Below, piece after piece: positions 7,302 through 32,403 of a DNA stretch of 36,506 nucleotides (the stretch's first letter is position 1; every line of letters begins with the position of its first letter). A program made the position numbers and the translations under genes. The notes under the pieces are model-generated. The model had not been told where the DNA came from and made no database searches. It saw only the letters and a list, made by a program, of their open reading frames with translations. Source of the DNA: Oleomonas cavernae (lineage in GTDB: Bacteria; Pseudomonadota; Alphaproteobacteria; Zavarziniales; Zavarziniaceae); contig NZ_QYUK01000011.1 in NCBI RefSeq assembly GCF_003590945.1, positions 4,337,501-4,374,006 on the forward strand, given 5' to 3'.

Positions 7302-7360
7302 TCGCAAAAGATGACCGGCCTCGATCCGATCGATCGACATTCTCACGGCGGAGAAGAGTG

Positions 7361-8962: not shown

Positions 8963-8986
8963 TCACGGTCGCCAGGAGAACAGGCC

Positions 8987-10156
8987 ATGGAACACGCCCC
9001 TGATTTTCGGCGGACATTGCTCAACCCGCGCTTCGACACGCACGAGACCGTGCTCGAGGAACGCCGCGCGCCCTTGTCCTTCGCCATGCCCTACGGCACC
9101 CGGATCTCCGAATACGAGCAGGTGCTGCTCTACGCCCAGCCCAATCCCGACTGGATCCCCGGGGGACTGGGCGTCGGCGGCTGGGCGACGGCCTTTCCCG
9201 GCGGGCGCGGGGCGTGGGAGAACTACACGACCGAAGCCAAGACGACCGACTGGTTCGTCTTCCGCGACCCCGAGGGCCGCTGGCAGCGGCCCTATGTCTC
9301 GGAGAAGGCGGATGAATGGCGCGAGATCCAGCGCCTGATCACCACGACCGCGACCCGGCGCAGCTATCGCGGCATCGATCCCGAATGGACGGGCAAGGTG
9401 CTCTGCGGCCACCTGGGGGCCTTGGCGCTGCACGATTACGGCATGTTCATGGCCCTGGCCGCGCCGACCCGGGATTGCCTGGTCGATACGCTGCGCGCCG
9501 CCATCGTCGCCACCGCCCTGGACCATCTCGACAATGCCCAGATGATCCAGGCCGAGAAGGTGTTCCTGGCCCAGGTCAGCGACCAGGCGACGGCCGAGAT
9601 CGCACCATCGAAGGCGCTGTGGCTCGAAGACGATACCTGGGCGCAGGCCCGGCGGGTGGTCGAGGAGATCTGGGGCCCGACCTATGACCATATCGAGATC
9701 CTGTTCGCCATGCATGTGATCCACGAGCCGCTGTTCGGGCGGTTCGTGCGCGACGAATTCCTCATGCAGGCGGCACCACTTCACGGCGACCTGTTCACCC
9801 CCCGGATCCTGGGCTATGCCGCCCGCGGCGCGGAAGCCGCCCATGCCTGGATCATGGAACTCTTCGCGCGCACCCTGGGCGGCGACCCCAAGTTCGGCCC
9901 CTACAATCGGACCTTGATGCATTTCTGGGCCGAGAAGTGGCTGCCGCTGAGCCTTGGCGCCATGACCGGCGCGGCGAAGCTGGGCAGCGCCACCGCGCGC
10001 CTGCGCCGGGGCGACGGCGCCTTCGATGCCCAGGCGGCGCAGCGGCGGGTCTGCGACGACTGGCTCGATCGCTTCGGCCTGCTGTTCGACAAGCCCATCG
10101 ACATCCACGGCGCCCTGCGCAAGGCAAGCGTCCAGGCGCGGGAGGAAGCCGCATGA
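8987..10156 (+). CDS. mmoY: sMMO-family hydroxylase beta subunit (MmoY-like)
   Basis: A 389-residue structural subunit that pairs with the alpha subunit in the (alpha-beta-gamma)2 hydroxylase. It lines up with MmoY through R-(I/L)-(S/T)-EYE, YAQPNPDWI, GGLGVGGW, the NYTTEAKTTDWFVFRDP region, PYVSEKADEWREIQR and the late YNRTLMHFWAEKWL segment. Diiron ligands are not expected in this subunit. It begins 24 nt after mmoX with an AGGAGAACAGGCC leader containing a good Shine-Dalgarno. Its stop codon overlaps the start of mmoB (ATGA), so translation is coupled. Length matches the family (389 in Methylococcus). Confidence 0.93.
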   Translation: MEHAPDFRRTLLNPRFDTHETVLEERRAPLSFAMPYGTRISEYEQVLLYAQPNPDWIPGGLGVGGWATAFPGGRGAWENYTTEAKTTDWFVFRDPEGRWQRPYVSEKADEWREIQRLITTTATRRSYRGIDPEWTGKVLCGHLGALALHDYGMFMALAAPTRDCLVDTLRAAIVATALDHLDNAQMIQAEKVFLAQVSDQATAEIAPSKALWLEDDTWAQARRVVEEIWGPTYDHIEILFAMHVIHEPLFGRFVRDEFLMQAAPLHGDLFTPRILGYAARGAEAAHAWIMELFARTLGGDPKFGPYNRTLMHFWAEKWLPLSLGAMTGAAKLGSATARLRRGDGAFDAQAAQRRVCDDWLDRFGLLFDKPIDIHGALRKASVQAREEAA

Positions 10157-10539
10157 CCAAGGAGACGCTGACCGAAATCCAGATCGCCCGCGCGCTTCAG
10201 GACAAGATGCTGAGCCGGTCCGCCGTGACCGAGACGCGCAGTGTGGTCCTGGCCCTGATGAAGGCCGACGAGATCGAGATCGCGGTCGAATGGCTGCGCG
10301 AGGCCTATGCCGACGATCCGACCCTGAAGATCGAGGACCACGGCGTCTATTACCGCATCGACTGCGCCGAGGAATTCACCTTCGACCTCGACGAGATCCA
10401 GGACATGGTCGGGCGCCCCTACAGCGTCTACGACTTCCTGGTCAACGTCTCGACCACGGTCGGGCGGGCCTATGTCAACGGCAACACGTTCACGATCACG
10501 ACCGCGCTGATCGGCTGGGAGAGCGAAGTCCCACGCTGA
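10153..10539 (+). CDS. mmoB: sMMO-family regulatory/coupling protein B (MmoB-like)
   Basis: A 128-residue, cofactor-free effector protein that binds the hydroxylase and gates oxygen and substrate access. It has the MmoB core: SVVLALMKADEIEIAV, a DDPTLKIEDHGVYYRI strand pair, VGRPYSVYDFLVNVSTTVGRAY and GNTFTITTALIGWE. The N-terminal tail is somewhat shorter than in Methylococcus MmoB (141 residues); that tail orders on hydroxylase binding and affects catalysis. ATG 10153 overlaps the mmoY stop, with GGAGGAAG ideally placed upstream. Confidence 0.93.
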   Translation: MTKETLTEIQIARALQDKMLSRSAVTETRSVVLALMKADEIEIAVEWLREAYADDPTLKIEDHGVYYRIDCAEEFTFDLDEIQDMVGRPYSVYDFLVNVSTTVGRAYVNGNTFTITTALIGWESEVPR

Positions 10540-10572
10540 GTTGCGGTCGCTACCTTGTCGGGGGTTGAGCCA

Positions 10573-11616
10573 ATGCAGGAATATCGTGTCCGGATGACCT
10601 TCGAGGGCCAGCACCCGATCGAGATGGGCTGCCGCGCCGACGAGGATGTGGTAACCGCCGGGTTACGCCAGGGCGTGCTGATCGTCAGCGATTGCCGCAA
10701 GGGCGCCTGCGGCGCCTGCCGCGCCTTCCTCGAGGAGGGGCAGTACGACCGGCTGCTCGATCACAGCCAGCATGCCCTGTCCGAGGACGACGAGGACGAA
10801 GGCTGGGTCCTGAGCTGCCGCCTGCGGCCGCGCAGCGATATCGCGCTCGATTTCGACTACCCGATCGACCGCGTCAGCCGGCTCGATGCCTCGCGCCGCT
10901 CCGGCCGCATCGTGGCGATCGAGCGGCGCTCGCCCACGGTGCTGCGGCTGGTCGTCCGCACCATGGCCGCGCAGGCGCCGCTGGCCTGGAAGCCGGGCCA
11001 GTATGTCCGGCTGGAACTCACCCGCGCCGGGGTGACGCGGTCGTTCTCGCCGGCCAATCTCGCCGGCGATGGCCACGACATCGAATTCTTCATCCGCCTG
11101 CTGCCCGGCGGCGCCTTCTCCCGGACCTTGCGGGCAATGCCCGGCCCCGGCGACATGGTCGCGGTCGAGGGGCCACTCGGCGGCTTCACCCTCAACCCGG
11201 CGGGCGAGCATGATCTGGTGTTCGTCGCCGGGGGAACGGGCCTGGCGCCGGTCCTGTCGATCCTGCGCCAGCTCGGCGCCGAGCAGCCCACGCGGCGGGC
11301 GACCCTGATCTTCGGCGCCGCCCAGGAGGACGAGCTGTTCGCCACGGCCGACCTGCAGGCCCTGCAAGCCGGCTTCCCCGGCCTGCGGGTCGAGCTGGCC
11401 GCGGAGGCGCCCCAGGCGTCGTGGACCGGCTTCCGCGGCACCGCGGTCGACCGGCTGGCCGCGTTGGCCCAGGCCGATCCCGATCATGCCGGCAAGCATT
11501 ATTACCTGTGCGGTCCGCAAGCGATGGTCGCGGCGGCCCACAGCCTGCTGACCCGGCAGCTTGCGGTGCCCGCCGGCGCCGTTCACCAGGAACCCTTTTC
11601 ACCGTCGGAGGGCTGA
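10573..11616 (+). CDS. mmoC: sMMO-family NADH reductase (MmoC-like)
   Basis: A 347-residue iron-sulfur flavoprotein that passes electrons from NADH to the hydroxylase; Methylococcus MmoC has 348. Residues 1-95 form a plant-type [2Fe-2S] ferredoxin domain with C41-X4-C46-X2-C49 and C82. The FAD domain has the RSFSPANL motif and the NAD domain has VFVAGGTGLAPVLSIL and YLCGPQAMV. I choose ATG 10573, preceded by a GGGGG run; an upstream in-frame TTG at 10555 is less likely. It is third from last here, between mmoB and mmoZ, whereas known sMMO and butane monooxygenase operons end in Z-D-C. Confidence 0.94.
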   Translation: MQEYRVRMTFEGQHPIEMGCRADEDVVTAGLRQGVLIVSDCRKGACGACRAFLEEGQYDRLLDHSQHALSEDDEDEGWVLSCRLRPRSDIALDFDYPIDRVSRLDASRRSGRIVAIERRSPTVLRLVVRTMAAQAPLAWKPGQYVRLELTRAGVTRSFSPANLAGDGHDIEFFIRLLPGGAFSRTLRAMPGPGDMVAVEGPLGGFTLNPAGEHDLVFVAGGTGLAPVLSILRQLGAEQPTRRATLIFGAAQEDELFATADLQALQAGFPGLRVELAAEAPQASWTGFRGTAVDRLAALAQADPDHAGKHYYLCGPQAMVAAAHSLLTRQLAVPAGAVHQEPFSPSEG

Positions 11617-11619
11617 CCC

Positions 11620-12186
11620 ATGAGAAAGCCGAAAGAGCGAAAGCAGCCGGGTGCCGAGCGGCGCCTCGAACCATCGCCCTTCGGCGACGGCGACCTGCGG
11701 CGTCGCTGGGCCGAGCGTATCGACGGCTACGACAGCCTGAAACTGGCCCTGCCCGAACTGCTCGCCGTTCGCGAGGAACGCGCGAAACGGCACCTGACCG
11801 ATGTCGACTGGCTGTGGATCGAGGCGCGGATCGAGGAACGGGTCGCGGTCCTGCGCTTCAAGGACCTGACCTATGAGCAGATCCGCACCCTGACGCTGAC
11901 CATGGAGCCGATCGACGAGGTCCAGCGCCGGTACGAGGAGGCGGCACGGCGCGGCGACGGGGCCGAAATCGAGGCCCTGGCCGCGGATTTTCGCCGCCGC
12001 TACAAGCCGCCGGTCATGCCGACCTCGCCGTTCATGAAGACCGAAACGGTGCTGAGCGAGTGGCTGATGAAGCGCCGCTCGCTCAACTGGTTCGCGCCGA
12101 CGATCGACGAGTTGCGGGCCCGCCGCGGCGTGACGGTCTTCAAGGAAGGCTGGCCCGAGCCGGCCGCCGACACTGTCGCCACCTGA
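11620..12186 (+). CDS. mmoZ: sMMO-family hydroxylase gamma subunit (MmoZ-like)
   Basis: A 188-residue small hydroxylase subunit (170 in Methylococcus). It is recognised by WLWIEARIEERVAVLRFK near residue 62, RRYKPPVMPTSPFM, and SLNWFAPTIDELRARRGV near the end, each with a close counterpart in MmoZ. It starts 3 nt after the mmoC stop, with GAGGG upstream. The extra length is an arginine/lysine-rich N-terminal extension. No mmoD-like ORF occurs between it and its neighbours. A gap of only 25 nt leads to the SOD gene, so co-transcription is likely. Confidence 0.92.
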   Translation: MRKPKERKQPGAERRLEPSPFGDGDLRRRWAERIDGYDSLKLALPELLAVREERAKRHLTDVDWLWIEARIEERVAVLRFKDLTYEQIRTLTLTMEPIDEVQRRYEEAARRGDGAEIEALAADFRRRYKPPVMPTSPFMKTETVLSEWLMKRRSLNWFAPTIDELRARRGVTVFKEGWPEPAADTVAT

Positions 12187-12211: not shown

Positions 12212-12832
12212 ATGTTCAGCCTGCCAGATCTGCCCTTCGAGCCCAAGGCGATGGCGCCCATCCTGTCCGAGGAAAGCTTTGCCTACCACCACGGCAAGCA
12301 TCACGCCGGCGTTGTCGCCGGCACCAATGCCATCGTCGAGCAACGCCCGGTGCTCCAGGGAAAATCCCTGGAGGAGATCATCATCTATGCCGCCGCCGAC
12401 CCGGCCCAAGACAACCTTCTGTTCAACGCCTCGCAGCATTGGAACCACAGCCTTTACTGGCTCTCGCTTTCGCCGCCCGGCTCGACCAGCCCGTCGAGCC
12501 GGGTCCGGGCGATGATCGAGGATTCCTTCGGCGACATGGCCGGTTTCAAGGCCGCCTTCGTCGATGCCTCGGTGAGGCGGATCGGCTCGGGCTGGACCTG
12601 GCTGATCGCCGAGGGCGGGAAGCTGGCGATCGAGACCACGATCAACTACGACGTCCCGCTCATCCGCGGCAAGCACGTGCTGGCCACCTGCGATGTCTGG
12701 GAACACACCTACTACATCGACTACCGCAACAACCGGAAAGGTTTCATCGAGATCTTCGTCGACCAGCTCCTGAACTGGGACACGATCGATCATCGGCTTA
12801 AATTCCCAGATGAGTCGCTTGATCCAGGCTGA
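12212..12832 (+). CDS. sodB: Iron superoxide dismutase
   Basis: A 206-residue cytoplasmic Fe/Mn-type SOD converting superoxide to oxygen and hydrogen peroxide. Metal ligands are H26 (AYHHGKHH), H79 (HWNH), D161 and H165 (DVWEHTYY). Gln75, in the SQHWNH segment, and GSGWTWL are iron-type features; Mn-SODs place the equivalent Gln in a different segment. GAGGAA precedes the ATG. It lies 25 nt after mmoZ on the same strand, so it appears to be part of the monooxygenase operon. SOD is not a standard member of sMMO operons. A role in removing superoxide leaked by the reductase or diiron centre is a reasonable inference. The C-terminus is about ten residues longer than usual. Confidence 0.92.
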   Translation: MFSLPDLPFEPKAMAPILSEESFAYHHGKHHAGVVAGTNAIVEQRPVLQGKSLEEIIIYAAADPAQDNLLFNASQHWNHSLYWLSLSPPGSTSPSSRVRAMIEDSFGDMAGFKAAFVDASVRRIGSGWTWLIAEGGKLAIETTINYDVPLIRGKHVLATCDVWEHTYYIDYRNNRKGFIEIFVDQLLNWDTIDHRLKFPDESLDPG

Positions 12833-12884
12833 TCTGGTCACGCCATCGCATATTTTACGTCTATGGTATTGGAAGGAGACGGAA

Positions 12885-13307
12885 ATGACACCCGAACAGA
12901 TCGATCTGGTGAAGCAGAGTTTCGAGAAAGTTGTTCCGATCGCGCCACAGGCGGCGGATCTGTTCTATGATCGCCTGTTCGAGATCGCGCCCGAGGTTGT
13001 TCCGCTGTTCAAGGGGGACATGCCGACGCAGGGGGCGAAATTGATGCAGGCATTGGGACTTGTCGTCGGAAGCCTTGACCGCCTGCACGAGGTGCTGCCA
13101 GCGGTCAAGGCGCTGGCAGTAAGGCATGTCGGCTACGGTGTTAAGGAGGTTCACTACACCCCAGTTGGTGCTGCGTTGCTTTGGACACTCGAGCAGGGGC
13201 TGGGGGATCAGTTTACACCAGCGGTCAAGGATGCATGGATTATCGCCTATGGTGCCCTGTCAGGTGTCATGATCGCGGCTGCGTACCGGGAAGTCGTGGA
13301 GGCCTGA
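12885..13307 (+). CDS. Single-domain bacterial haemoglobin (globin)
   Basis: A 140-residue globin like the haem domain of flavohaemoglobin and Vitreoscilla haemoglobin, with no reductase domain. The proximal haem ligand is H81 in KALAVRH, followed by the conserved YGVKEVHYTPVGAALLWTL stretch and DAWIIAYGALSGVM. I choose ATG 12885, with AAGGAGA 7 nt upstream; the frame is open back to 12810, overlapping the SOD end. It follows sodB by 52 bp on the same strand, with no terminator between them. Possible roles are oxygen delivery to the oxygenase or NO detoxification. Codon choice looks slightly less GC-rich than the mmo genes. Confidence 0.9.
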   Translation: MTPEQIDLVKQSFEKVVPIAPQAADLFYDRLFEIAPEVVPLFKGDMPTQGAKLMQALGLVVGSLDRLHEVLPAVKALAVRHVGYGVKEVHYTPVGAALLWTLEQGLGDQFTPAVKDAWIIAYGALSGVMIAAAYREVVEA

Positions 13308-14478: not shown

Positions 14479-15441
14479 TCACGGGCGCGGACGGGCATGG
14501 CCCGGCCGATCGACCGCATCGGCCGCGGCAATGCTGGGCAGGAAGCTGCCGCCGCGCTCGATCAGGAAATCGATGATGGCGCGCACGGCCGGCACTGGCC
14601 GGCGCTGGGCAAGATGGACGACATACCATTGCCGCACGATCGGCAGGCCCTTGACATCCAGGGCCACCATGCGCCCGTCGGCCAGTTCCGCCCCCACCGT
14701 GTGACCTGAAATGAACGAGATGCCCAGGCAGGCGATGACCGCCTGCTTGATCGTCTCGTTGCTGTCGATCTGCATCGCGATCGGCGGGTGAATATGCATC
14801 TTGTCGAAAAAGCGCTCCATCAGGCCGCGGGTGCCGCTGCCCGGTTCGCGCACCAGGAAGGTTTCCTCGGCCAGCAGCCTGGCCGGGATGTCGCGCTGGC
14901 CGGCCAGGGGGTGATCAGGCGGGGCGACGATGAGATGCGGATGATCCCCGATCACCTCGGCTTCGACCTCGAGTTCGAGCGGCGGGCGGCCGGTGATGGC
15001 GACATCGATGCCGAAGTGCCGGAGGCGGTCCATGATCTCGGCCCGGTTGCCGACGGTAAGGCGCAGCGAGATGCCGGGGTGAAGCCGGCGAAAGGCGGCC
15101 AGGGCCTGGGGCGCGAAGTACTTGGCCGTCGAGACCACGCCGATCGAGACCGTGCCCTTTTCCGCCCCGGCAAGACTGGACAACATGGCGACGCAATCGG
15201 CCATGGCCGCGTCGATCCGCTCCGCCGCGGTCAGGATCTCGCGGCCGGCGTCGGTGGCCACGGTCTCGTTGCCGTGACGCTCCAGCAGCGGCTGGCCGGC
15301 CAATTCCTGCAATTGCTGCAACTGCATGGTGACCGCCGGTGGTGTCACATGGAGTTCCGCCGCGGCACGGGTGATCGAGCCGGTCCGGATCACTGCCTGA
15401 AGCGCGCGTAATTGTCGCAGGGTGACGGCGTGGAGGCTCAT
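14479..15441 (-). CDS. cbbR: CbbR-type LysR regulator
   Basis: A 320-residue LysR protein resembling CbbR, the activator of Calvin-cycle operons that senses metabolites such as RuBP or NADPH. The DNA-binding domain is residues 5-65 (LRQLRALQAVIRTGSITRAA, VTPPAVTMQLQQLQ). The effector domain has STAKYFAPQALAAFRRLHPGI, NRAEIMDRL, FLVREPGSGTRGLMERFF and NETIKQAVIACLGISFISGHT, which are characteristic of CbbR. It is divergent from gap with 254 bp between, the arrangement used for cbb operons. The last about 20 residues (from FLPSIAAAD) may be altered by the adjoining integrase remnant. Confidence 0.85.
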   Translation of the reverse strand: MSLHAVTLRQLRALQAVIRTGSITRAAAELHVTPPAVTMQLQQLQELAGQPLLERHGNETVATDAGREILTAAERIDAAMADCVAMLSSLAGAEKGTVSIGVVSTAKYFAPQALAAFRRLHPGISLRLTVGNRAEIMDRLRHFGIDVAITGRPPLELEVEAEVIGDHPHLIVAPPDHPLAGQRDIPARLLAEETFLVREPGSGTRGLMERFFDKMHIHPPIAMQIDSNETIKQAVIACLGISFISGHTVGAELADGRMVALDVKGLPIVRQWYVVHLAQRRPVPAVRAIIDFLIERGGSFLPSIAAADAVDRPGHARPRP

Positions 15442-15695: not shown

Positions 15696-16703
15696 ATGGC
15701 GACCAGGGTGGCGATCAACGGCTTTGGCCGGATCGGACGCAATATCCTTCGGGCGATCATCGATTCCGGGCGCAGCGATATCGAGATCGTGGCGATCAAC
15801 GATCTGGGTTTCGTGGAAACCACCGCGCATTTGCTGCGCTATGATTCGATCCATGGCCGCTTTCCCGGTGAAGTCCTGGTCGACCGGAACCGGTTGATCG
15901 TCAACGGCGCGCCGATCGCGGTTACCCAGTATCTGAAACCTGAAGAGTTGCCGCACGGGGCGATGGCGATCGACATCGTCTTCGAATGCACGGGCTATTT
16001 CGCCAGCCGGGAAAAATCGGCCGTGCATCTGGCCGCCGGCGCCAAGCGGGTGCTGGTGTCGGCACCGGTCGATGATGCCGACATCACCATTGTCTACGGC
16101 GTCAATCACCAGGCCCTGAGGTCGGAACATCGGATCGTCTCAAACGCTTCCTGCACCACCAACTGCCTGGCACCGGTGGCCAAGGTGCTCAACGACGCGA
16201 TCGGCATCGACAAGGGCTTCATGACCACGGTGCACTCCTATACCAACGATCAGCCGTCGCTCGATCAGATGCACCGCGACCTCTATCGCGCCCGGGCCGC
16301 CGCCCTGTCCATGATTCCCACGGCGACAGGGGCCGCGCGGGCCGTCGGCCTGGTCCTGCCCGAGCTCAAGGGCAAGCTCGACGGCGTCGCCATTCGCGTG
16401 CCCACCCCCAATGTCTCGGTCATCGATCTAAAGGTCGTCACCAAGCGGGCGACCTCGGTCGAGGAGGTGAACGAGGTCATCAAGACTGCCGCCGCCGGCA
16501 GTCTGCGGGGCATTCTCGCCTATACCACCGCGCCCAACGTGTCGGTCGACTTCAACCAGGATCCCGCCTCGTCCACCGTCGCCCTGGATCAGACCAAGGT
16601 CCTGGGCGGGACGCTCGTGCGCATCATGAGCTGGTACGACAACGAGTGGGCCTTTTCCAATCGGATGAACGATACCGGCGCCGCCATGGCCAAGCTGATC
16701 TGA
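15696..16703 (+). CDS. gap: Type I glyceraldehyde-3-phosphate dehydrogenase
   Basis: A 335-residue GAPDH. NAD(P)-binding GFGRIGRN is at residues 9-16, the catalytic Cys153 lies in SNASCTTN, and the C-terminal [13 protein letters not shown] motif is intact. It interconverts glyceraldehyde-3-phosphate and 1,3-bisphosphoglycerate. Its divergent pairing with cbbR suggests the Calvin-cycle (reductive) isoform, although no RubisCO or other cbb gene is in the window. Coenzyme preference cannot be fixed: the residue after the second strand is Asp (INDLG), which favours NAD. It converges on a DUF2182 gene whose reading frame runs into its 3' end. Confidence 0.95.
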
Positions 16704-17423
16704 GCCGTCGGACCGGCGGCGCGGCGTGTCGGCTGCCGCACGGTGTGACCGGGCCGGGGCCTCCCGCTCCACCAGGAGCAGGAGCGAGACGGCCGCCATC
16801 AGCGGCACATGCGCCCCGGTCACGACGAGCGGGACCAGCATCAGGGCCCAGCAGGCGCCGACGCACCAGACCCCGATGGCCAGCCCGTAGCGCAGGCAGT
16901 CCCGGTCCGCCGCCAGGCCGAAGCTGGCCAGCGCGGGCCGCCAATGGCATCGATCGAGGCAGGCCTGCTTCGCCGGCGCAACCTGCCACAACAGGGCGAT
17001 CGCCCCGGCCACGACCGGCCCAAGCCACCAGGAGCCGCCGGCCAGCGCCTGCAGGGCGATCGCGGCCGCCACCAGGGCCATTCCCGACACCATCCAGACG
17101 GCCAGGTAGGCGAGCGCGAAGACGACGATCGCGCGCAGCCGGCGCCCGGCCGGGCGGCCACCCCAAAGATGGGCCACCGGCCGGGCGAGCAGCGGCGGCA
17201 TCATGGCCAGCAGCATCAGCAGCCAAGCCTGAGCCGTCTGCGCCGGCGGGTTGAGGAGGAACAGCAACTCCAGCCTCTGCCAGTCCCAGGCCGGAAAATA
17301 GCCGGCGGCGGCACCGCAGAAACCCTGCCCCGTGCGCCAGCCGCCGGTGCCGAGCAACGCAGCCCATCCCATCAGGCTGACGGTCAGCAACGGCAGCCAA
17401 ACGTCTTTACGCACCTGCGGCAT
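16428..17423 (-). CDS. DUF2182 predicted metal-binding membrane protein, odd C-terminus
   Basis: A polytopic membrane protein of the DUF2182 family, function unknown. Family features are the first helix with GWAALLG, the [13 protein letters not shown] segment, and later helices ending [12 protein letters not shown] near residue 223. The genuine protein probably ends soon after that: the rest of the frame (to 16428) is hydrophilic and antisense to the 3' end of gap, with no family resemblance. A small lesion that removed the normal stop is likely. The ATG at 17423 is the start. It is divergent from coxM across 489 bp. Confidence 0.65.
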
Positions 17424-17912
17424 GAGCGTTTCCCCATGGTCTATCGGCCGGCGGCTTCGATCGTTCAGGCCGGATCGGCAGTCTTGTTTCCGATCCCAAG
17501 GCAGGCAACCTGCTCAAGCACGAACGGCGCCGGCAAGTCGCGAACGGCGATGGCGGCGCACGAACGGCGGCCCGCCCGGCCCGCCCGGCCTGGCGGCTGC
17601 GGCAGGCGGCCCGATGACGCGATGCATCATGTGGCGTGCGCCGCCCGGGCCTGGCCGGCGTCCATGCCGCCGTTGATGAAAGGCGGGCGGCCGCCCGGCG
17701 CATTTCGTTCACGCAGACCGGCATTCAGCGCGCCAACCGCGGCATTGGTGAATCCGCAATTGATGCTGCGGCGCGGGGAGGGCGACCGTTGCCTCGAACG
17801 CGAAACAGGCTCGACCGACCCCGAACGGCTTCGATAAGGGGGCACGCCTGTCCAGCCAAACAAACAGAGCGGATCGAGCGGTCTTCGCTGCGCCTGGGGA
17901 GGTAAACAAACA
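17424..17912. promoter_or_regulatory. Upstream region of the cox locus
   Basis: A 489-bp region with no credible gene, lying between the divergent DUF2182 gene and coxM. It contains the 20-bp-spaced repeat array at 17521-17569 and a fourth copy of its core at 17822-17829. CGAACGCG near 17797 is a partial copy. The coxM leader ends in GGGGAGGTAAACAAACA before the ATG, a strong Shine-Dalgarno. No consensus sigma-70 or sigma-54 promoter is evident. Confidence 0.6.
17521..17569 (-). promoter_or_regulatory. Three 9-bp direct repeats, exact 20-bp period (LytTR-like sites)
   Basis: CGAACGGCG occurs at 17521-17529, 17541-17549 and 17561-17569. Read on the minus strand, the repeats give GCCGTTCGT, GCCGTTCGC and GCCGTTCGT. 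These match 8, 7 and 8 of 9 positions of the LytTR consensus as I recall it ([TA][AC][CA]GTTN[AG][TG]). Pairs of about 9-bp direct repeats two helical turns apart are how LytTR proteins bind. The MHYT-LytTR gene at 30043 in the same locus is the natural candidate, but binding is inferred. Confidence 0.5.
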
Positions 17913-18779
17913 ATGATTCCCGGTTCATTCCAGTATTACCGGCCAGCGTCCGTCACGGACGCGGTCAAGCTTCTGGCCGATCTAGGGGACGACGCCCGGC
18001 CGCTGGCCGGCGGGCACAGCCTGATCCCGATGATGAAGCTGCGCATGGCCAATCCCGAACACCTGGTCGATCTCGGCGGCATCGCCGATCTGAAGGGTAT
18101 CCGGCAGGCCGGCGGGCGGATCGAGATCGGGGCGATGACGACGCAGGCCGAACTGATCGCCTCGGACCTGCTGGGCCAGGCCGCGCCGATCATCAAGGAG
18201 ACTTCCCTGCTGATCGCCGATCCGCAGGTTCGCTATTGCGGCACCCTGGGCGGCAATGTCGCCAACGGCGACCCCGGCAACGACATGCCGGCCGTGATGA
18301 TGGCGCTCGACGCCCGCTACCACGTCATCGGCGCCGCCGGCACGCGCGAGATCGCGGCCCGCAGCTTCTACCAGGGCGCCTACTACACCGCCCTCGAACC
18401 GGGCGAGATGGTGACGGCGATCTCCTTCGCGCCGCCGCCGGCCGGGCACGGCTGCGCCTATGAGAAGCTGAAGCGCAAGATCGGTGACTACGCCACCGCC
18501 GCCGCCGCGGTCATCCTGACCCTCGCGGGCGGCAAGGTCAGCCACTGCGCGATCACCCTGACCAACGTCTCGGAAACGCCGTTGCTGGCCGAGGCCGCGG
18601 CAAGGCATGTCATCGGCTCTCGCCTGGAGCCCGACGTGCTCGCCCGGGCCGTCGCCGCGGCCGAGGCGATCACCGACCCGGCGACCGACGGCCGCGGGCC
18701 TGCGGTCTACCGCACCAAGATGGCCGGCATCATGGTCAGGCGTGCGCTCGAACGCGCCGCCGCCCGCGCTGCCGCCTGA
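17913..18779 (+). CDS. coxM: Aerobic CO dehydrogenase medium (FAD) subunit
   Basis: A 288-residue flavoprotein subunit of Mo-Cu CO dehydrogenase. The FAD-binding motifs of the family are present: [15 protein letters not shown] near residue 32 and [17 protein letters not shown] near residue 111. Electrons from the small subunit's clusters reach the quinone pool through this FAD. It is the first gene of the order M-S-L, as in other cox clusters. GGGAGGTAAACAAACA precedes the ATG. The gap to coxS is 29 nt. Confidence 0.95.
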
Positions 18780-18808: not shown

Positions 18809-19305
18809 ATGGCAAAAGTTCACGTCCAGATGACGGTGAACGGGGAGGCGGTCGAAGGGCTGGTCGAGCCCCGCACCCTGCTCATCCACTTCATCCGCGA
18901 ACAGCTCAACCTGACCGGTGCCCATATCGGCTGCGACACCTCCCATTGCGGGGCCTGCACGGTCGATCTCGACGGCCTGTCGGTGAAGAGCTGCACCCGC
19001 TTCGCCGTCCAGGCCAACGGCGGCACGGTGACCACCGTCGAGGGCATGGCCGGCGCCGACGGCACCTTGCATGCGTTGCAGGAAGGCTTCCGCATGATGC
19101 ACGGCCTGCAGTGCGGCTTCTGCACCCCCGGCATGATCATGCGGGCCCACCGGCTGCTGCAGGAGAACCCCGATCCGACCGAAGCCGAGATCCGTTTCGG
19201 CATCGCGGGCAACCTCTGCCGCTGCACCGGTTACCAGAACATCGTCAAAGCCATTCAATATGCAGCCGCCAAGATCAACGGCGTGCCCTTCGTGGAGGCC
19301 GCGGA

Positions 19306-19309
<4 letters not shown>
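18809..19309 (+). CDS. coxS: Aerobic CO dehydrogenase small (2x[2Fe-2S]) subunit
   Basis: A 166-residue iron-sulfur subunit. The proximal ferredoxin-like cluster uses C42, C47, C50 and C62; the cluster nearer the Mo site uses C102, C105, C137 and C139 (CGFCTPGM and CRCTGY). These positions equal those in Oligotropha carboxidovorans CoxS. The stop codon overlaps the coxL start (ATGA at 19306-19309), indicating coupled translation of the two subunits. Confidence 0.96.
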
Positions 19310-21726
<2,417 letters not shown>

Positions 21727-21760: not shown

Positions 21761-21834
21761 GCGCTGTCGACTGCCTGACCGGGCGCCCTGCGCCCGCGGG
21801 AAACCTGCGCCTTCTTTTTGGACGACCTGTGACG

Positions 21835-22713
21835 ATGACCGACCGCAACACCATTTCCCAGCGCCTCGCCCAGGCCGGCTATGTCGCCGATCGCGACCTT
21901 GCCACCGCGCTGTGGCTGATGGATCTGTTGCAGCGCCCGTTGCTGCTCGAAGGGGCGGCCGGGGTGGGCAAGACCGCGGTTGCCCAGGCCTTGGCGCAGG
22001 TCCACGGCGCCCACCTGATCCGCCTGCAATGCTACGAGGGGCTGGACCAGAACGCCGCCCTCTACGAATGGAACTACCAGCGCCAGATCCTGGCGCTGAA
22101 GGTGCGCGAGACCAGCGGCCAGGCCGCCGCGGCGATCGAGGCGGAAATATTCTCCGAGGCCTATCTGCTCGAGCGCCCGCTCCTGGCCGCGATCCGCAGT
22201 GAAACCCCCATCGTCCTGCTGATCGACGAGGTGGACCGGGCGGACGAGGAATTCGAGGCCCTGCTGCTCGAAGTCCTGTCCGACTTCCAGGTCACCATCC
22301 CGGAACTCGGCACCCTCAAGGCGCGGTCGATCCCGCGCGTGGTGCTGACCTCGAACGGCACGCGGGAGCTGTCGGACGCGCTGCGCCGGCGCTGCCTGTT
22401 CCATTTCGTCGATTTCCCCGACGTCGATCGCGAGGCCGCCATCATCAAGGCGCGCCTGCCCGCCATCGATGCCACCCTGGCATTGCAGGCGGCCCGCTTC
22501 GTCGCGGCCATCCGCAAGGAAGAGCTGCGCAAGGTGCCGGGCGTCGCCGAGACGCTCGATTTCGTCGCCGCCCTAACCGGCATGGGAATCGACGACATCC
22601 GCCGCGACGCCGAGGCGGTCTACGACCTGCTCACCGCCCTGCTGAAGACCCACGAGGATCACGCCGCGATCGGCCTCGAAGTGGTCGAACGCCTGGTTCA
22701 CAAGGTGGCATGA
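21835..22713 (+). CDS. coxD: CoxD, MoxR-type AAA+ ATPase
   Basis: A 292-residue AAA+ ATPase of the MoxR/CoxD type with Walker A GAAGVGKT (about residue 42), Walker B VLLIDEVDRAD and sensor-1 VLTSNGTRELSD. In Oligotropha, CoxD is needed to insert sulfur and copper into the [CuSMoO2] centre. ATG 21835 or an in-frame GTG at 21829 could be the start; neither has a strong Shine-Dalgarno. coxE begins 4 nt after its stop. Confidence 0.9.
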   Translation: MTDRNTISQRLAQAGYVADRDLATALWLMDLLQRPLLLEGAAGVGKTAVAQALAQVHGAHLIRLQCYEGLDQNAALYEWNYQRQILALKVRETSGQAAAAIEAEIFSEAYLLERPLLAAIRSETPIVLLIDEVDRADEEFEALLLEVLSDFQVTIPELGTLKARSIPRVVLTSNGTRELSDALRRRCLFHFVDFPDVDREAAIIKARLPAIDATLALQAARFVAAIRKEELRKVPGVAETLDFVAALTGMGIDDIRRDAEAVYDLLTALLKTHEDHAAIGLEVVERLVHKVA

Positions 22714-22717
22714 GACC

Positions 22718-23935
22718 ATGGACGTCTGTTCAACCGAACGATCAGAAGGCAAGGCGCCGCCGGCCGTCGACGCGGGTGCGCTGATAAGGCGCCGGCTCTC
22801 CGGCTTCGTCCAGGTGCTGCGCGACAACGGCTTCGCGGTCGGGCTGGGCGAGACGGCCGACGCCCTGCGGCTGCTTGCTGCCGCCGATCTGGGAAACCGG
22901 GCGGCACTGCTGGCGGGCTTGCGGGCCTTGCTGGCGTCCCGCCGCTCGGACTGGGAGAAATTCGCGGCCCTGTTCGATGCCTATTGGTTCGCCCGGCACC
23001 TGCGCGATGGTGCAAGGATCGCCGATCCGCGGCCGCGCCGCGGCGGGCCGCGCATGATGGTGACGGCCGACGATGGCCCCGAGTCCGGCACCGATGCCAT
23101 CCTGCGGACCGAACGACGGCCGGATGGCGAGGGTGACGACGCCCCGGCCGCGGGCCACGAGCGGGGCGGCACGTCCGACCAGGAACGCCTGGCGCGCACC
23201 GATTTCCGGCATATCCTCGACCCGGTGGAACGGGAACGGGTTCACGCCCTGGCGCGGCGCCTCGCCGCCGCGATGCGGGCCCGGCTGACCCGCCGCCACG
23301 AGGTTGCGCGCAACGGGTCGAAGATCGACCTGCGGCGCAGCCTGCATCGCAGCGTCGCCCGCGGCGGCCTGCCGCTCGAACTGGTCTATCGCCGCCGCCG
23401 CACCAAGCCGCTGAAACTGGTGATCCTGCTCGATGCCTCGGGCTCGATGAGTCCCTATGTGACCGTCTTCGTCCGCTTCATGCACGGCGTGCTGGACAGC
23501 TTCCGCCAGGCGGCGGCCTTCGTCTTCCACACACGCCTCGCCGACGTGACCGACGCCATGCGGGAAAAGGATCCGCAACGGGCGGTCGACCGCCTCGGCC
23601 TGATGGCCCAGGGGGTCGGCGGCGGCACCAGGATCGGCGCCTGCCTCGCCACCTTCAACCGCTGGCACGCCGCCCGTATCATTCATTCCCGCACCGCCGT
23701 GCTGATCGTCTCGGACGGTTACGACACCGGCGAACCCGCCCAACTGGCAAGCGAGATGGCGGCACTGCGCCGCCGTTGCCGGCGGATCGCCTGGCTCAAC
23801 CCCATGATCGGCTGGCACGGCTACGAGCCCGTGGCGGCGGGCATGCGGGCGGCGCTGCCCTATGTCGATCTCTTCGCGCCGGCCCACAGTATCGAGAGCC
23901 TCGAGGCGCTCGAACCCTACCTGGCGCGGCTGTGA
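22718..23935 (+). CDS. coxE: CoxE, von Willebrand A-domain maturation factor
   Basis: A 405-residue protein whose C-terminal half is a VWA domain with a MIDAS DASGS motif (VILLDASGSMSPY). The N-terminal half has RRRLSGFVQVLRDNGFAVGLGETADALR, typical of CoxE. In Oligotropha, CoxE acts with the CoxD ATPase to supply copper to the active site. The start is 4 nt after coxD. A variable, charged linker lies at about residues 100-165. Confidence 0.92.
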   Translation: MDVCSTERSEGKAPPAVDAGALIRRRLSGFVQVLRDNGFAVGLGETADALRLLAAADLGNRAALLAGLRALLASRRSDWEKFAALFDAYWFARHLRDGARIADPRPRRGGPRMMVTADDGPESGTDAILRTERRPDGEGDDAPAAGHERGGTSDQERLARTDFRHILDPVERERVHALARRLAAAMRARLTRRHEVARNGSKIDLRRSLHRSVARGGLPLELVYRRRRTKPLKLVILLDASGSMSPYVTVFVRFMHGVLDSFRQAAAFVFHTRLADVTDAMREKDPQRAVDRLGLMAQGVGGGTRIGACLATFNRWHAARIIHSRTAVLIVSDGYDTGEPAQLASEMAALRRRCRRIAWLNPMIGWHGYEPVAAGMRAALPYVDLFAPAHSIESLEALEPYLARL

Positions 23936-23951
23936 CCGGAGGATTGGCCCG

Positions 23952-24791
23952 ATGACGACGCCCGACGTCCTCGACCTGATGCATGACCTGCAGGCGCGTG
24001 AGACGCCGTTTGCCGTGGCGACCGTGGTTCGCACCGCGTCGGTGACTGCGGCCAAGGCCGGGGCCAAGGCACTGATCCTGGGCGACGGCACGGTCGCTGC
24101 CGGCTGGGTCGGCGGCGGTTGCGCGCGGGGTGCCACGCTTTCGGCCGCCCGGGAGGCCCTGGCCGACGGCTGCCCGCGCCTGGTCTCGATCCAGCCCGAC
24201 GACATGCTGCACGAGATCGGCGTGCGCAACGGCGAAACCCGCGACGGGGTCCGTTACGCCCACAACATGTGCCCCAGCCAGGGCACGATGGATATTTTCG
24301 TCGAACCCGTTCTGCCGCGGCCCCAACTGGTGGTGCTGGGCGCCTCGCCGGTGGCGCGGGTGCTGGTCGCGACCGCCGGGCAGTTCGGCTTCCGGGTGAC
24401 TGCCGCCGCCCCCGCCCGCAGCCACGGCGAGCTTGCCGCCGCCGACCATCTGATCGATGGCTTCGACCTGCCGCCGTCGAGCGGCCCCCGCTTCCTCGTC
24501 GTCTCGACCCAGAGCGCCGGGGATCTGGCGGCATTGACCGCCGCCGTCGCGGGCAAGGCGCCATACCTGGCCTTCGTCGGCTCCCGGCGCAAGATCGCCA
24601 GCCTGCTCGAGGACCTGCGCGGCGCCGGCATCGCCGAGGAAAGCCTGGCCGCGATCAAGGCCCCGGCCGGTCTCGATATCGGTGCCGTTACGCCCGAGGA
24701 AATTGCCCTGTCGATCCTGGCGGAGGTGATCGCGATCCGCCGCCGCGGGCCTCTACCCCAACCGAGCCAACAGAAGAAGGACACCAACTGA
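23952..24791 (+). CDS. coxF: CoxF, XdhC/CoxI-family maturation protein
   Basis: A 279-residue XdhC/CoxI-family protein. The N-terminal XdhC domain has TVVRTASVTAAKAGAKALI and GWVGGGCARG. The C-terminal Rossmann-like domain has LVVLGASPVARVLV and AFVGSRRK, then DIGAVTPEEIALSILAEVIA. XdhC-type proteins bind the molybdopterin cofactor, protect it and help insert it. Conserved MCPSQGTMDIFVEP is typical of CoxF. ATG 23952 follows GGAGGATTGG, 16 nt after coxE. Confidence 0.85.
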   Translation: MTTPDVLDLMHDLQARETPFAVATVVRTASVTAAKAGAKALILGDGTVAAGWVGGGCARGATLSAAREALADGCPRLVSIQPDDMLHEIGVRNGETRDGVRYAHNMCPSQGTMDIFVEPVLPRPQLVVLGASPVARVLVATAGQFGFRVTAAAPARSHGELAAADHLIDGFDLPPSSGPRFLVVSTQSAGDLAALTAAVAGKAPYLAFVGSRRKIASLLEDLRGAGIAEESLAAIKAPAGLDIGAVTPEEIALSILAEVIAIRRRGPLPQPSQQKKDTN

Positions 24792-24792
24792 A

Positions 24793-25365
24793 ATGGAAAT
24801 GATCGGTGCTCAACGCGTCAACGCCCCGCAGCAAGCCGTCTGGGAGGCCCTCAACGATACCGAGGTGCTGCGGCAGTGCATCCCCGGCTGCGAGTCGATC
24901 ACCCGGGTGAGCCCCACCAACCTGGAAGCCCTGGTCACCCTGCGCATCGGCCCGGTGAAGACCTCGTTCAAGGGCGCGGTCACCCTCTCGGACATCAATC
25001 CGCCCAACGGCTATACGATCAAGGGCGAGGGCAACGGCGGGTCGGCGGGCCAGGCCAGGGGTGGTGCCAAAGTCTGGCTGGTGCGCGAAGGCGGCGCCAC
25101 GGTCCTCAACTACGCGGTCAATGCCGAGGTGAGCGGCAAGCTCGCCCAGCTTGGGGCGCGGCTCATCGATGCCACCGCCAAGAAGCTGGCGGACGACTTT
25201 TTCGAGAAGCTGGGCGACATCGTTGCCCCGCCCACCGCCGAGGTGCTGGCGATCCGCGAAGCCCGGGGCCCGTTCATCTGGCGCCTGATCAAGGCCCTGG
25301 TGCGCGGCATCAGGCGCCTATTGGGCGGCGGCACGTCCAAGCCGACCGGCAATCCGGCCGGCTGA
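24793..25365 (+). CDS. coxG: CoxG, SRPBCC-fold membrane recruitment protein
   Basis: A 190-residue CoxG with an SRPBCC lipid-binding-like domain (MIGAQRVNAPQQAVWEALND, CIPGCESI, GPVKTSFKGAVTLSD, SGKLAQLGARLID). A basic/hydrophobic C-terminal tail with FIWRLIKALVRGIRRLLG could touch the membrane. CoxG-like proteins have been linked to membrane docking of CO dehydrogenase or delivery of quinone to it. The start is one base after the coxF stop, so they are co-translated. Confidence 0.92.
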   Translation: MEMIGAQRVNAPQQAVWEALNDTEVLRQCIPGCESITRVSPTNLEALVTLRIGPVKTSFKGAVTLSDINPPNGYTIKGEGNGGSAGQARGGAKVWLVREGGATVLNYAVNAEVSGKLAQLGARLIDATAKKLADDFFEKLGDIVAPPTAEVLAIREARGPFIWRLIKALVRGIRRLLGGGTSKPTGNPAG

Positions 25366-26386: not shown

Positions 26387-27992
<1,606 letters not shown>

Positions 27993-28065
27993 CAGTGATC
28001 GACGAGCTTCGCCGAGCGAAGGGCAGTGCGTAACCGGACCACAAGAGAGAAATCGGGAGGACTCA

Positions 28066-28721
28066 ATGATCAAGAGGGTGCTTTTACTGGCGTGCGCGAT
28101 CGTCGCGACGCTTGGCATGATAAACACGGTGCAGGCGGCGGAGCAGAGTCCGTGGCTGGTCCGCGGCCGGGTCCTGGCCGTGCTGCCCCAGGAGAGCGGG
28201 GACCTGCGGCTGGATACGGTCGGTCCGCTCGCGGGCGACGTCTCGATCGACGATTCGGTGGTGCCGGAACTCGATATCACCTATTTCCTGCTGCCGAATG
28301 TCGGCGTCGAGCTGATCCTCGGCACCACGCCGCACAGTGCGGCGGCGACCGATACCGTTCTCGGCCCAAGACCGACCTGGGCGATGTCTGGCTGCTGCCG
28401 CCGACCCTTCTGGTGCAATATCACTTTGCCCCCGAAGGCAAGATCCGCCCCTATGTCGGGGCCGGCGTCAACTACACGATCTTCTACGGCAAGGATGAGC
28501 CGAACGGAGTCTCGGTCGACTACGAGAACAATTTCGGCTGGGCCCTGCAGGCGGGCATCGATATCGCGCTCGCCGACCACTGGGCCTTGAACGTCGACGT
28601 CAAGCAGATATTCCTGTCGACCGATGTCACCGTGCGCGGGCTGACGGGTGCCGCCGCCATCCGTGCCGATGTCGATATCAACCCGCTGCTGATCGGCGTC
28701 GGCGTCGGTTACCGCTTCTGA
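28066..28721 (+). pseudogene. ompW: OmpW-family outer membrane protein, frameshifted
   Basis: A small eight-stranded beta-barrel porin-like protein. The signal peptide is MIKRVLLLACAIVATLGMINTVQA. The first half (WLVRGRVLAVLPQES, VPELDITYFLLPNVGVELILGTTPH) and the second half (TDLGDVWLLPPTLLVQYHF, YVGAGVNYT, NFGWALQAGIDIAL, GVGVGYRF ending in aromatic Phe) are both typical of OmpW. They lie in different frames. A single base is missing in the GGCCC run at 28363-28367, before AAG ACC GAC. OmpW barrels are linked to entry of small hydrophobic compounds. Its presence between cofactor genes of a cox cluster is unusual. Confidence 0.82.
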
Positions 28722-30042: not shown

Positions 30043-31224
30043 GTGATTACCCACAGTCCTTGGCTCGTTGCTCTGTCGTTGATCATTGCAGCCCAAGGCA
30101 GCTACGTCAGCCTGCTTCTTGCGGACGAGGGGGACCGCGTGCGCGGCATGCGCCGCCGACTGATCCTGGCCGCGGCGGCCATGACGCTGGCTGTCAGCAT
30201 CTGGTCGATGCATTTCGTCGGCATGCTGGCGGCGCGGTTTCCCGTGATGGTCGGCTTCCGAGTTCTGCCGACCCTGGTCTCCCTGCTGATTTGCGTGCTA
30301 GTCGTCGGCGCGGGGGTATTGATCGTCCACACCTCCCGCCCCAAGGTCGTGCGCATCGTCGGCGGCGCCGTGGCGATGGGGGCAGGTATCGCCACGATGC
30401 ACTATGTGGGCATGTCGGCGATCAATGGTTGTGAATTGCAGCATTCGCCGGTCTATGTCGTCGCCTCGACCCTGGTTGCCATCGTGGCCAGCGGCCTCGG
30501 CCTGTGGCAGATCGAGGGCCTGAGGCCGGAGGCCTCGCGCCGCGGCGCGTCGGCGGCGATTCTCGGCCTCGCCATTTCCGGCATGCACTACACCGCCATG
30601 GCGGGGCTGACGGCGATCCCCCTGGGCCTGTCGGCCCCGACCGATCCGGTGATGCCGCACGACATCATGGCGATCGTGGTCGCGGTGGTCTCCTTCCTCA
30701 TTTCCGGCGGGTTCCTGCTGTCGCTGACGCCCGATCGCCAGCTCGAGCGGGAACAACCGGCCGCGCCGGCCGCCGACGCAGCGCCCCCGCCGGCCGATGC
30801 GCCGCAAGAAGGCGCCCCGGCGCCCGTCGCCTCGGGCGCATCCGCCGGGGGGGAGGAAAAATCGCTGCCGCCGGAAGCGGCTTTTGCGCGCCAGGTCGAG
30901 GTGCAGAAAGACAACCGCAACCACCGGCTGGCGGTGTCGAGCATCGCCTTCGTGCGGGCCAATGGGCACTACACCCTGGTCTCGGACGGCGAGCAGGAAT
31001 TCTTCTGCCAGAGCACGATCGGCGAGATCGAGGCCCTGCTGGATCCTGCGCTGTTCATGCGCGTCCACCGTAGTTACATCGTGTCGATCAGCCGCATCGA
31101 AGCCGTCCGCCGGGCAGGCGACGGCGGCATTGCCGAGATCGACGCCCAGGTACCCCACATCATTCCGGTGGCGCGCGGACGCTTTTCAGCCGTCAAGAAA
31201 CGGCTGATGGAGTCTCACGGCTAG
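30043..31224 (+). CDS. MHYT-LytTR membrane sensor-regulator (CoxC/CoxH type)
   Basis: A 393-residue protein joining a seven-helix MHYT domain to a C-terminal LytTR DNA-binding domain. The three MHYT motifs are SMHFVGM (Met56-His57), TMHYVGM (Met119-His120) and GMHYTAM (Met181-His182), facing a proposed copper-type gas-sensing site for CO, O2 or NO. A Pro/Ala-rich linker covers about residues 235-270. The LytTR domain runs from about residue 300 (IAFVRANGHYTLV, FMRVHRSYIVSI, IPVARGRF). CoxC and CoxH of cox clusters have this architecture; which one this is cannot be decided. The GTG start follows GGGAGGATGGG. The TAG stop uses the TA target of the IS630 insertion. Confidence 0.9.
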   Translation: MITHSPWLVALSLIIAAQGSYVSLLLADEGDRVRGMRRRLILAAAAMTLAVSIWSMHFVGMLAARFPVMVGFRVLPTLVSLLICVLVVGAGVLIVHTSRPKVVRIVGGAVAMGAGIATMHYVGMSAINGCELQHSPVYVVASTLVAIVASGLGLWQIEGLRPEASRRGASAAILGLAISGMHYTAMAGLTAIPLGLSAPTDPVMPHDIMAIVVAVVSFLISGGFLLSLTPDRQLEREQPAAPAADAAPPPADAPQEGAPAPVASGASAGGEEKSLPPEAAFARQVEVQKDNRNHRLAVSSIAFVRANGHYTLVSDGEQEFFCQSTIGEIEALLDPALFMRVHRSYIVSISRIEAVRRAGDGGIAEIDAQVPHIIPVARGRFSAVKKRLMESHG

Positions 31225-32270: not shown

Positions 32271-32403
32271 TAGATCACAGACCCGGTTAGCGCCTCAGGC
32301 GTCGTCATCCGAAGGCGAGGGCCGGGGAGAAATGAACCAGACAAGAATATCGTCCGCCGAGTTGCAGCCTCGTCGGTTGCGCGCCCCGCAGCCAATCAAC
32401 GAG

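What the first reader, a model, noticed from the sequence alone, without database searches (positions are those of the whole stretch)
17521..17569. 20-bp-spaced repeats upstream of coxM match LytTR sites
Three CGAACGGCG copies repeat at an exact 20-bp interval, two helical turns, so all face the same side of the DNA. On the minus strand they fit 7-8 of 9 positions of the LytTR consensus, and a fourth 8-of-9 copy is at 17822. The same locus encodes a membrane MHYT-LytTR protein, a plausible gas-sensing regulator acting directly on coxMSL.
Basis: partly seen in the sequence, partly recalled or inferred. Interest (0 to 1): 0.8.

Follow-up and report, generated by a model that had tools for sequence, protein, structure and literature searches.

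The report
Paired CO-regulator docking sites beside coxM
The three evenly spaced DNA repeats look like a docking site for the cell's membrane-bound carbon monoxide sensor, but they appear to face a neighbouring gene of a copper-handling family, while a second, weaker docking site sits at the usual place before the carbon monoxide dehydrogenase genes.

Summary
The repeats are real: three exact CGAACGGCG at 20-bp steps; 0 of 200 null windows held any such equally spaced triple. The locus encodes an MHYT-LytTR protein (30043-31224) related to Afipia carboxidovorans CoxC, whose binding to direct repeats at PcoxB is published (PMC11347149). I fitted a motif on 43 other clusters with an MHYT-LytTR gene upstream of coxM, leaving out this window and its congener: a TTCGTGC triplet at 19-22 bp steps, co-directional with coxM in 42 of 43. 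All 13 held-out clusters have it (12 of 13 at 71-166 bp from coxM); 0 of 3 coxM clusters without an adjacent MHYT-LytTR gene do. Both sides are partly conserved in the congener. Binding and the sign of regulation are untested.

The parts
17517..17569 (-).
   Evidence: exact repeats; best hit of the motif fitted without this window, 27.7 against a null maximum of 23.9 in 60; unique pattern in the genome; 14-bp block conserved in G002
17704..17752 (+). Operator B (coxM side): TTCGTTCA 17704, TTCAGCGC 17725, TTGGTGAA 17745; weaker copy, ends 160 bp before the coxM ATG
   Evidence: second best hit in the window: 18.1, inside the null range (mean 13.9, maximum 23.9); 24.2 with the wider motif, null maximum 21.2 in 100; p 0.005 within 600 bp upstream of coxM
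17760..17765 (+). candidate -35 of coxM, TTGATG, exactly 15 bp after the start of site 3 of operator B (inferred)
   Evidence: TTG at +15 in 27 of 54 other clusters
17503..17508 (-). candidate -35 of the PpoB2 gene, TTGCCT, 16 bp after the start of site 3 of operator A (inferred); possible -10 AAGACT at 17480-17485
   Evidence: in G002 TTGGCC at +15 and AAGACT further on
16428..17423 (-). PpoB2/DUF2182 family gene (PF09948, 'copper chaperone'), putative target of operator A
   Evidence: Pfam 96 bits, cut-off 28.7; also next to coxM in G002
17913..18779 (+). coxM, CO dehydrogenase FAD subunit
   Evidence: Pfam; G002 copy 80% identical
18809..19309 (+). coxS
   Evidence: Pfam Fer2_2/Fer2
19306..21726 (+). 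coxL, aerobic CO dehydrogenase large subunit
   Evidence: TIGR02416 1527 bits, cut-off 991
21829..25365 (+). coxD, coxE, coxF-like, coxG
   Evidence: Pfam MoxR-type AAA, VWA_CoxE, XdhC/CoxI, COXG
30043..31224 (+). MHYT-LytTR regulator, CoxC-related, 393 aa; presumed binder of both operators
   Evidence: PF03707 three stretches, PF04397 residues 292-388; 44% identical to OM5 CoxC

Best explanation
The triplet at 17517-17569 is an operator for the locus's own membrane CO sensor (MHYT-LytTR, CoxC type). LytTR domains would dock side by side on one face of the DNA at three CGCCGTTCG sites 20 bp apart. It is one of two such operators in the coxM/PpoB2 intergenic region: A (minus strand) just upstream of the promoter of the PpoB2/DUF2182 gene, and B (plus strand, weaker) just upstream of the coxM promoter. 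CO, sensed through copper in the MHYT domain, would change occupancy of both, so that CO dehydrogenase and a putative copper-handling protein are switched together. Shown by sequence: the repeats, the family motif, its association with adjacent MHYT-LytTR genes, the second triplet, partial conservation in a congener. Inferred: binding, CO response, promoter positions, sign of regulation, and any role of PpoB2 in copper supply.
For: Repeats far beyond chance and unique in the genome in this register. Motif from 43 other clusters, window and congener excluded, ranks this triplet first in 36.5 kb and the coxM-side triplet second (also first and second). Held-out test: 13 of 13 clusters with an adjacent MHYT-LytTR gene positive at the floor p of 0.005, 0 of 3 without. 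Leave-one-out: plus strand better in 42 of 43, optimum at 17-23 bp steps. TTG exactly 15 bp after the start of site 3 in 27 of 54 clusters, 20 of 40 after removing similar rows. The one full-length LytTR gene found in the genome is the MHYT-LytTR gene. Congener G002 keeps GCACGAACGGCGCC and, 20 bp on, CACGAGCGGCG.
Against: No binding or expression data. Operator B in the window is weak: its second site TTCAGCGC lacks the usual GTG, and the narrow motif score 18.1 lies inside the whole-window null. In G002 the third A-side site is weak and two scorings choose different third sites; on the coxM side the motif's third site does not have TTG at +15. Published PcoxB repeats are described with 18-21 bp spacers, not 12. 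Three of 43 training clusters (L003, L012, L034) show no convincing triplet. PpoB2 adjoins coxM only in this genus among 17 coxM-bearing genomes. The negative control set is only 3 clusters.
Confidence: 0.7

Rival explanations
1. Operator A is a distal operator of coxM: the regulator bound at A and B cooperates (looping or one complex) to control coxM alone, and PpoB2 is not a target.
For: Both triplets lie in the same intergenic region in the window and in G002; A is the stronger one in the window.
Against: A is on the minus strand and 93 bp from the PpoB2 start; a TTG follows at +16 (window) and +15 (G002) in that direction; other clusters show a single co-directional triplet near coxM.
Confidence: 0.17
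2. The repeats bind another regulator, for example the CbbR-like LysR protein encoded at 14479-15441 or a protein encoded elsewhere.
For: A LysR gene lies in the same window.
Against: Direct repeats in helical phase that match a motif found next to MHYT-LytTR genes; LysR sites are usually inverted T-N11-A boxes (recalled).
Confidence: 0.08
3. Chance or a composition artefact of GC-rich DNA.
For: The stretch is GC-rich and a 9-bp tandem repeat lies beside it.
Against: 0 of 200 nulls; the stretches between copies differ; conserved block in the congener; best hit of an independently fitted motif.
Confidence: 0.05

Closest known systems
CoxC / PcoxB operator of Afipia carboxidovorans OM5 (PMC11347149; text parts 1-5 of 6 read, supplement not)
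   Same: MHYT-LytTR regulator encoded in the cox cluster; three direct repeats; regulator 44% identical. With my motif PcoxB holds TTCATGCG, TTGGTGGA, TTTGGGCA at 21 and 20 bp with TTGATG at +15, the same layout.
   Different: The paper's repeats, as I deduce them from its mutant primers, are TTACCGCC, TTTGGGCA, TTGCGGCA with starts 29 and 26 bp apart; its operator lies before coxB. Here operators lie before coxM and before a divergent PpoB2 gene, and the regulator gene is at the far end of the cluster.
RcoM1 operator of Paraburkholderia xenovorans (as described in PMC11347149)
   Same: Three TTCNNGCA direct repeats with 12-13 bp spacers; the window has 12 and 12. Two beta-proteobacterial coxM upstream regions read by eye show triplets at 20-21 bp with TTGAAT at +14.
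   Different: RcoM is a soluble haem sensor and an activator; no such gene was among the LytTR hits of this genome. The wider motif does not pick out the two beta-proteobacterial regions (8.4 and 9.9, below the null maxima).
PpoB2 of Marinomonas mediterranea (PMC2855505; passages only)
   Same: Same Pfam family, PF09948, as the divergent gene; involved in copper transfer to the tyrosinase of its operon.
   Different: Here a partner would be the Mo-Cu CO dehydrogenase or the sensor itself; nothing is tested.

Membership tests
CoxC-type (MHYT-LytTR) regulatory system | Regulator with MHYT and LytTR domains encoded in the cox cluster | tested here: met
   30043-31224, PF03707 and PF04397; 44% identical to OM5 CoxC
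CoxC-type (MHYT-LytTR) regulatory system | Three direct repeats TTNNNGCN | tested here: inconclusive
   Two copies fit TTNNNGC; copy 2, TTCGCGAC, fits only TTNNNG
CoxC-type (MHYT-LytTR) regulatory system | Spacers of 18-21 bp, as published for PcoxB | tested here: not met
   Spacers here are 12 bp (starts 20 bp apart). PcoxB also fits 20-21 bp starts in another register, so I file this as a variant, not under the published definition
CoxC-type (MHYT-LytTR) regulatory system | Binding by the LytTR domain, relieved by CO with copper | not testable with these tools
   needs gel shift and reporter assays
Triplet before coxM in MHYT-LytTR clusters (defined here) | Three-site motif at 19-22 bp steps scoring above nulls | tested here: met
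   Operator A 27.7 against null maximum 23.9; operator B 24.2 against 21.2 with the wider motif, but 18.1, inside the null, with the narrow one
RcoM operator | Three TTCNNGCA with 12-13 bp spacers | tested here: inconclusive
   Spacers 12 and 12; of the six fixed letters 5, 4 and 5 fit
RcoM operator | RcoM (haem PAS-LytTR) gene present | tested here: not met
   Two LytTR hits in the genome, the MHYT-LytTR gene and a partial copy of it
LytTR-domain binding site | 9-bp consensus (recalled) in direct repeats in helical phase | tested here: met
   8, 7 and 8 of 9 positions by my count; exact 20-bp steps

The most novel reading that the evidence does not exclude
The CO sensor CoxC runs a small CO-and-copper regulon through one fixed operator-promoter module (TTCGTGC triplet at 20-bp steps, -35 exactly 15 bp after the start of the third site), a layout it shares with the unrelated haem sensor RcoM. 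In this genus a divergent second copy of the module puts a copper-chaperone-family gene under the same switch, to load the Mo-Cu enzyme or the copper-dependent sensor. The published PcoxB operator is then one instance read in a different register, and a CoxC operator before coxM in OM5 itself has been overlooked.
Probability: 0.4. Interest if true: 0.75.

Novelty: new variant of a known kind. Interest (0 to 1): 0.6.

Why it matters
It offers a concrete, family-wide DNA code for how aerobic CO-oxidising alpha-proteobacteria control CO dehydrogenase, predicts an operator in the model strain OM5 that the paper on CoxC does not mention in the text I read, and gives another reading of that paper's mutants. 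It also links a copper-chaperone-family gene to a Mo-Cu enzyme. All of it can be tested with short DNA probes.

Tried and rejected
Operator upstream of the MHYT-LytTR gene: TTC..GC pairs show no peak at 19-22 bp in 49 such regions, and 2 of 49 triplets reach p 0.05 against 25 of 45 before coxM; both sets include the window and G002.

The copy at 17822: chance. Tandem duplication: rejected. RcoM as the regulator: no such gene among the LytTR hits.

A triplet with all three sites TT...GC: none in the window, because copy 2 has GA. The rule was loosened after seeing this, so the statistics rest on the motif fitted without the window.

PpoB2 as a general partner of coxM: rejected; of 17 genomes with coxM, only G000 and G002 have PF09948 next to coxM, the others on another contig, far away, or not at all (which searched these 17 plus G001 and G004; 11 of 19 have the family). 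Papers with DUF2182 and copper: none in the library.

Rows not counted or weak: L123, L125, L126 and L131 show triplets identical to training loci and were not counted as held out; L119 and L120 are the window and G002. Training clusters L003, L012 and L034 lack a convincing triplet. L122 has one only 316 bp from coxM (score 17.4). Beta-proteobacterial L137 scores 11.1, p 0.06; its triplet, and one register in L138, were then read by eye, and the wider motif does not support either region. In one search the +15 count covers 54 rows: 42 of 43 training rows and 12 of 13 held-out rows (L122 left out).

One search stopped on a file error after printing the logo; the missing comparison was done. 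The tree has no CoxH, which is annotated in two pieces in OM5; a direct comparison gives 44% identity to CoxC over 397 columns and 35% to the longer CoxH piece over 278.

Full report
What is there. Three exact CGAACGGCG copies start at 17521, 17541 and 17561. This is the only equally spaced (10-60 bp) triple of an identical 9-mer in the window, and 0 of 200 Markov nulls had one. The stretches between copies differ and no 20-bp tandem array is reported. A TTCGNG triplet in this register is found once in the 5.64-Mb genome, here. The fourth copy at 17822 is unremarkable: 42 hits with up to one mismatch against 32.4 expected.

Surroundings. coxM starts at 17913, followed by coxS, coxL (TIGR02416) and coxD, E, F-like and G. 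The gene running the other way, 16428-17423, is a PF09948 PpoB2/DUF2182 protein. The MHYT-LytTR protein is 30043-31224, 44% identical to OM5 CoxC. In a tree of 53 such proteins it groups with its G002 counterpart (100/100) and then with L003, encoded directly upstream of coxM (98/93); CoxH is not in that tree. The genome has two LytTR hits; the other is a partial second copy, 91% identical over residues 188-375, without the MHYT part.

Prior knowledge. I read parts 1-5 of 6 of the text of PMC11347149 (supplement not read). CoxC of A. carboxidovorans OM5 represses PcoxB in E. coli, its LytTR domain binds a PcoxB probe with three direct repeats TTNNNGCN, and CO with copper releases the membrane-bound protein. 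The paper describes the RcoM1 site as three TTCNNGCA with 12-13 bp spacers. In the parts read it mentions no operator before coxM. Searches of the paper library for CoxC/CoxH/promoter, for MHYT with carbon monoxide from 2023 on, and for coxM/promoter/LytTR listed no other paper on such an operator; subscription journals are mostly not held.

Family test. I took upstream regions from clusters that carry the MHYT-LytTR gene before coxM. In 45 coxM upstream regions (window and G002 included) pairs of TTC..GC occur once at 19 bp, 7 times at 20, 9 times at 21 and at no other distance from 5 to 35 bp; in 49 regions upstream of the regulator gene there is no such peak. A three-site motif was fitted on 43 regions without the window and G002: CA(G/T)TTCGTGC at site 1, TTCGTGC at site 2, looser at site 3, steps mostly 20/20 or 21/19, 42 of 43 on the coxM strand. 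A wider logo adds CG before the CA and a G four bases upstream of TT kept in 96% (site 1) and 94% (site 2) of 40 rows. Leave-one-out scoring favours the plus strand in 42 of 43 and steps of 17-23 bp. Of 13 held-out clusters with an adjacent MHYT-LytTR gene, 13 have a triplet at p 0.005, the floor of 200 nulls; 12 end 71-166 bp before coxM and one, L122, at 316 bp. Three coxM clusters without an adjacent MHYT-LytTR gene (L130, L134, L136) have none, best p 0.080-0.398. Two of these genomes, G309 and G342, had no match to the regulator at E 1e-15; in the third, G188, the matches lie at its other coxM cluster. A strict two-site pattern run over 385 genomes of the class hit twice, 96 and 99 bp before coxM in G028 (a training locus) and G159 (held out), with no control hit; it missed the other 15 coxM-bearing genomes, this one included. 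The clusters are related, and the nulls keep only dinucleotides.

A fixed promoter geometry. TTG begins exactly 15 bp after the start of site 3 in 27 of 54 clusters, the next commonest offset having 8; after removing similar rows, 20 of 40 against 6. I read it as the -35; that is inference.

The window. With a wider motif they score 26.7 and 24.2 against a null maximum of 21.2 in 100. TTGATG follows the plus triplet at exactly +15, TTGCCT the minus one at +16.

The congener. G002 (coxM 80% identical, regulator 70-73%) keeps GCACGAACGGCGCC and, 20 bp on, CACGAGCGGCG on the A side, with TTG at +15, and GGTGAATCCG...TTGATGCTGC on the coxM side. With the wider motif its two sides score 27.1 and 26.2 against a null maximum of 17.5. 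The third A-side site is weak, and different scorings choose different third sites on that side; on the coxM side the motif's third site lies 20 bp before the place that would put TTG at +15. PpoB2 lies beside coxM in G002 too (47% identity over residues 34-241).

OM5 itself. With a motif built without OM5 and its near relatives, the region before OM5 coxM scores 32.5 and PcoxB 26.1. In PcoxB my sites are TTCATGCG, TTGGTGGA and TTTGGGCA (steps 21 and 20; TTGATG at +15). As single sites the first two lie in the top 0.004% and 0.02% of positions and the shared third in the top 0.6%; the published first and third repeats, deduced from the primers, lie at 14% and 10%. The published first mutation changes the G four bases before my site 2, and two bases eight and nine before it, so the published loss of binding fits my register too. 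This re-reads published data; it is not a test, and the authors' mutants were designed for, and agree with, their own register.

Relation to RcoM. In two beta-proteobacterial coxM upstream regions, one with a LytTR gene annotated nearby (Pfam finds LytTR and no PAS), I read by eye triplets at 20-21 bp steps followed by TTGAAT at +14. The narrow motif scores one at p 0.005 and the other at 0.06; the wider one neither. Two sensors of different chemistry may thus use one layout; this part is weak. RcoM activates while CoxC was shown as a repressor. A fixed distance to the -35 is what one expects of a regulator that touches RNA polymerase, so the sign at this locus is open.

Mechanism. Most likely, LytTR domains of the membrane CO sensor dock on both triplets, and CO, through copper in the MHYT domain, changes docking at both promoters, so that CO dehydrogenase and PpoB2 are expressed together. 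PpoB2 of Marinomonas is involved in copper transfer to its partner enzyme (PMC2855505, passages); CO dehydrogenase has a Mo-Cu centre and CoxC needs copper to respond to CO (PMC11347149). The copper link is inference.

Noticed in passing
7358-12186: A soluble-methane-monooxygenase-like operon upstream of the cox genes: MmoX-like alpha subunit (phmmer 4.1e-187 to 1fyz_A), a second PF02332 subunit, MmoB/DmpM, reductase and MeMO_Hyd_G gamma subunit, in the order X, Y, B, C, Z, which is not the order I recall for methanotrophs. Fe/Mn superoxide dismutase and a globin follow at 12212-13307.
   Followed up: partly
L002 and L094 (G000:C11:145890-146396): A partial second copy of the MHYT-LytTR gene, 91% identical over residues 188-375, without the MHYT half.
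   Followed up: partly
31274-32273: Transposase remnants (helix-turn-helix and DDE_3) directly downstream of the MHYT-LytTR gene.
   Followed up: no
27985-28590: An OmpW-family outer-membrane protein inside the cox cluster; an OmpW gene also precedes coxM in Paraburkholderia aromaticivorans plasmid pBN2.
   Followed up: no
14479-15441: A CbbR-like LysR regulator (NF045990, 368 bits, below its cut-off of 450) downstream of the PpoB2 gene on the same strand.
   Followed up: no
L117 2725-3925: CoxH of OM5 is annotated as two overlapping pieces in NC_015689.1, which suggests a frameshift or a sequencing error.
   Followed up: no
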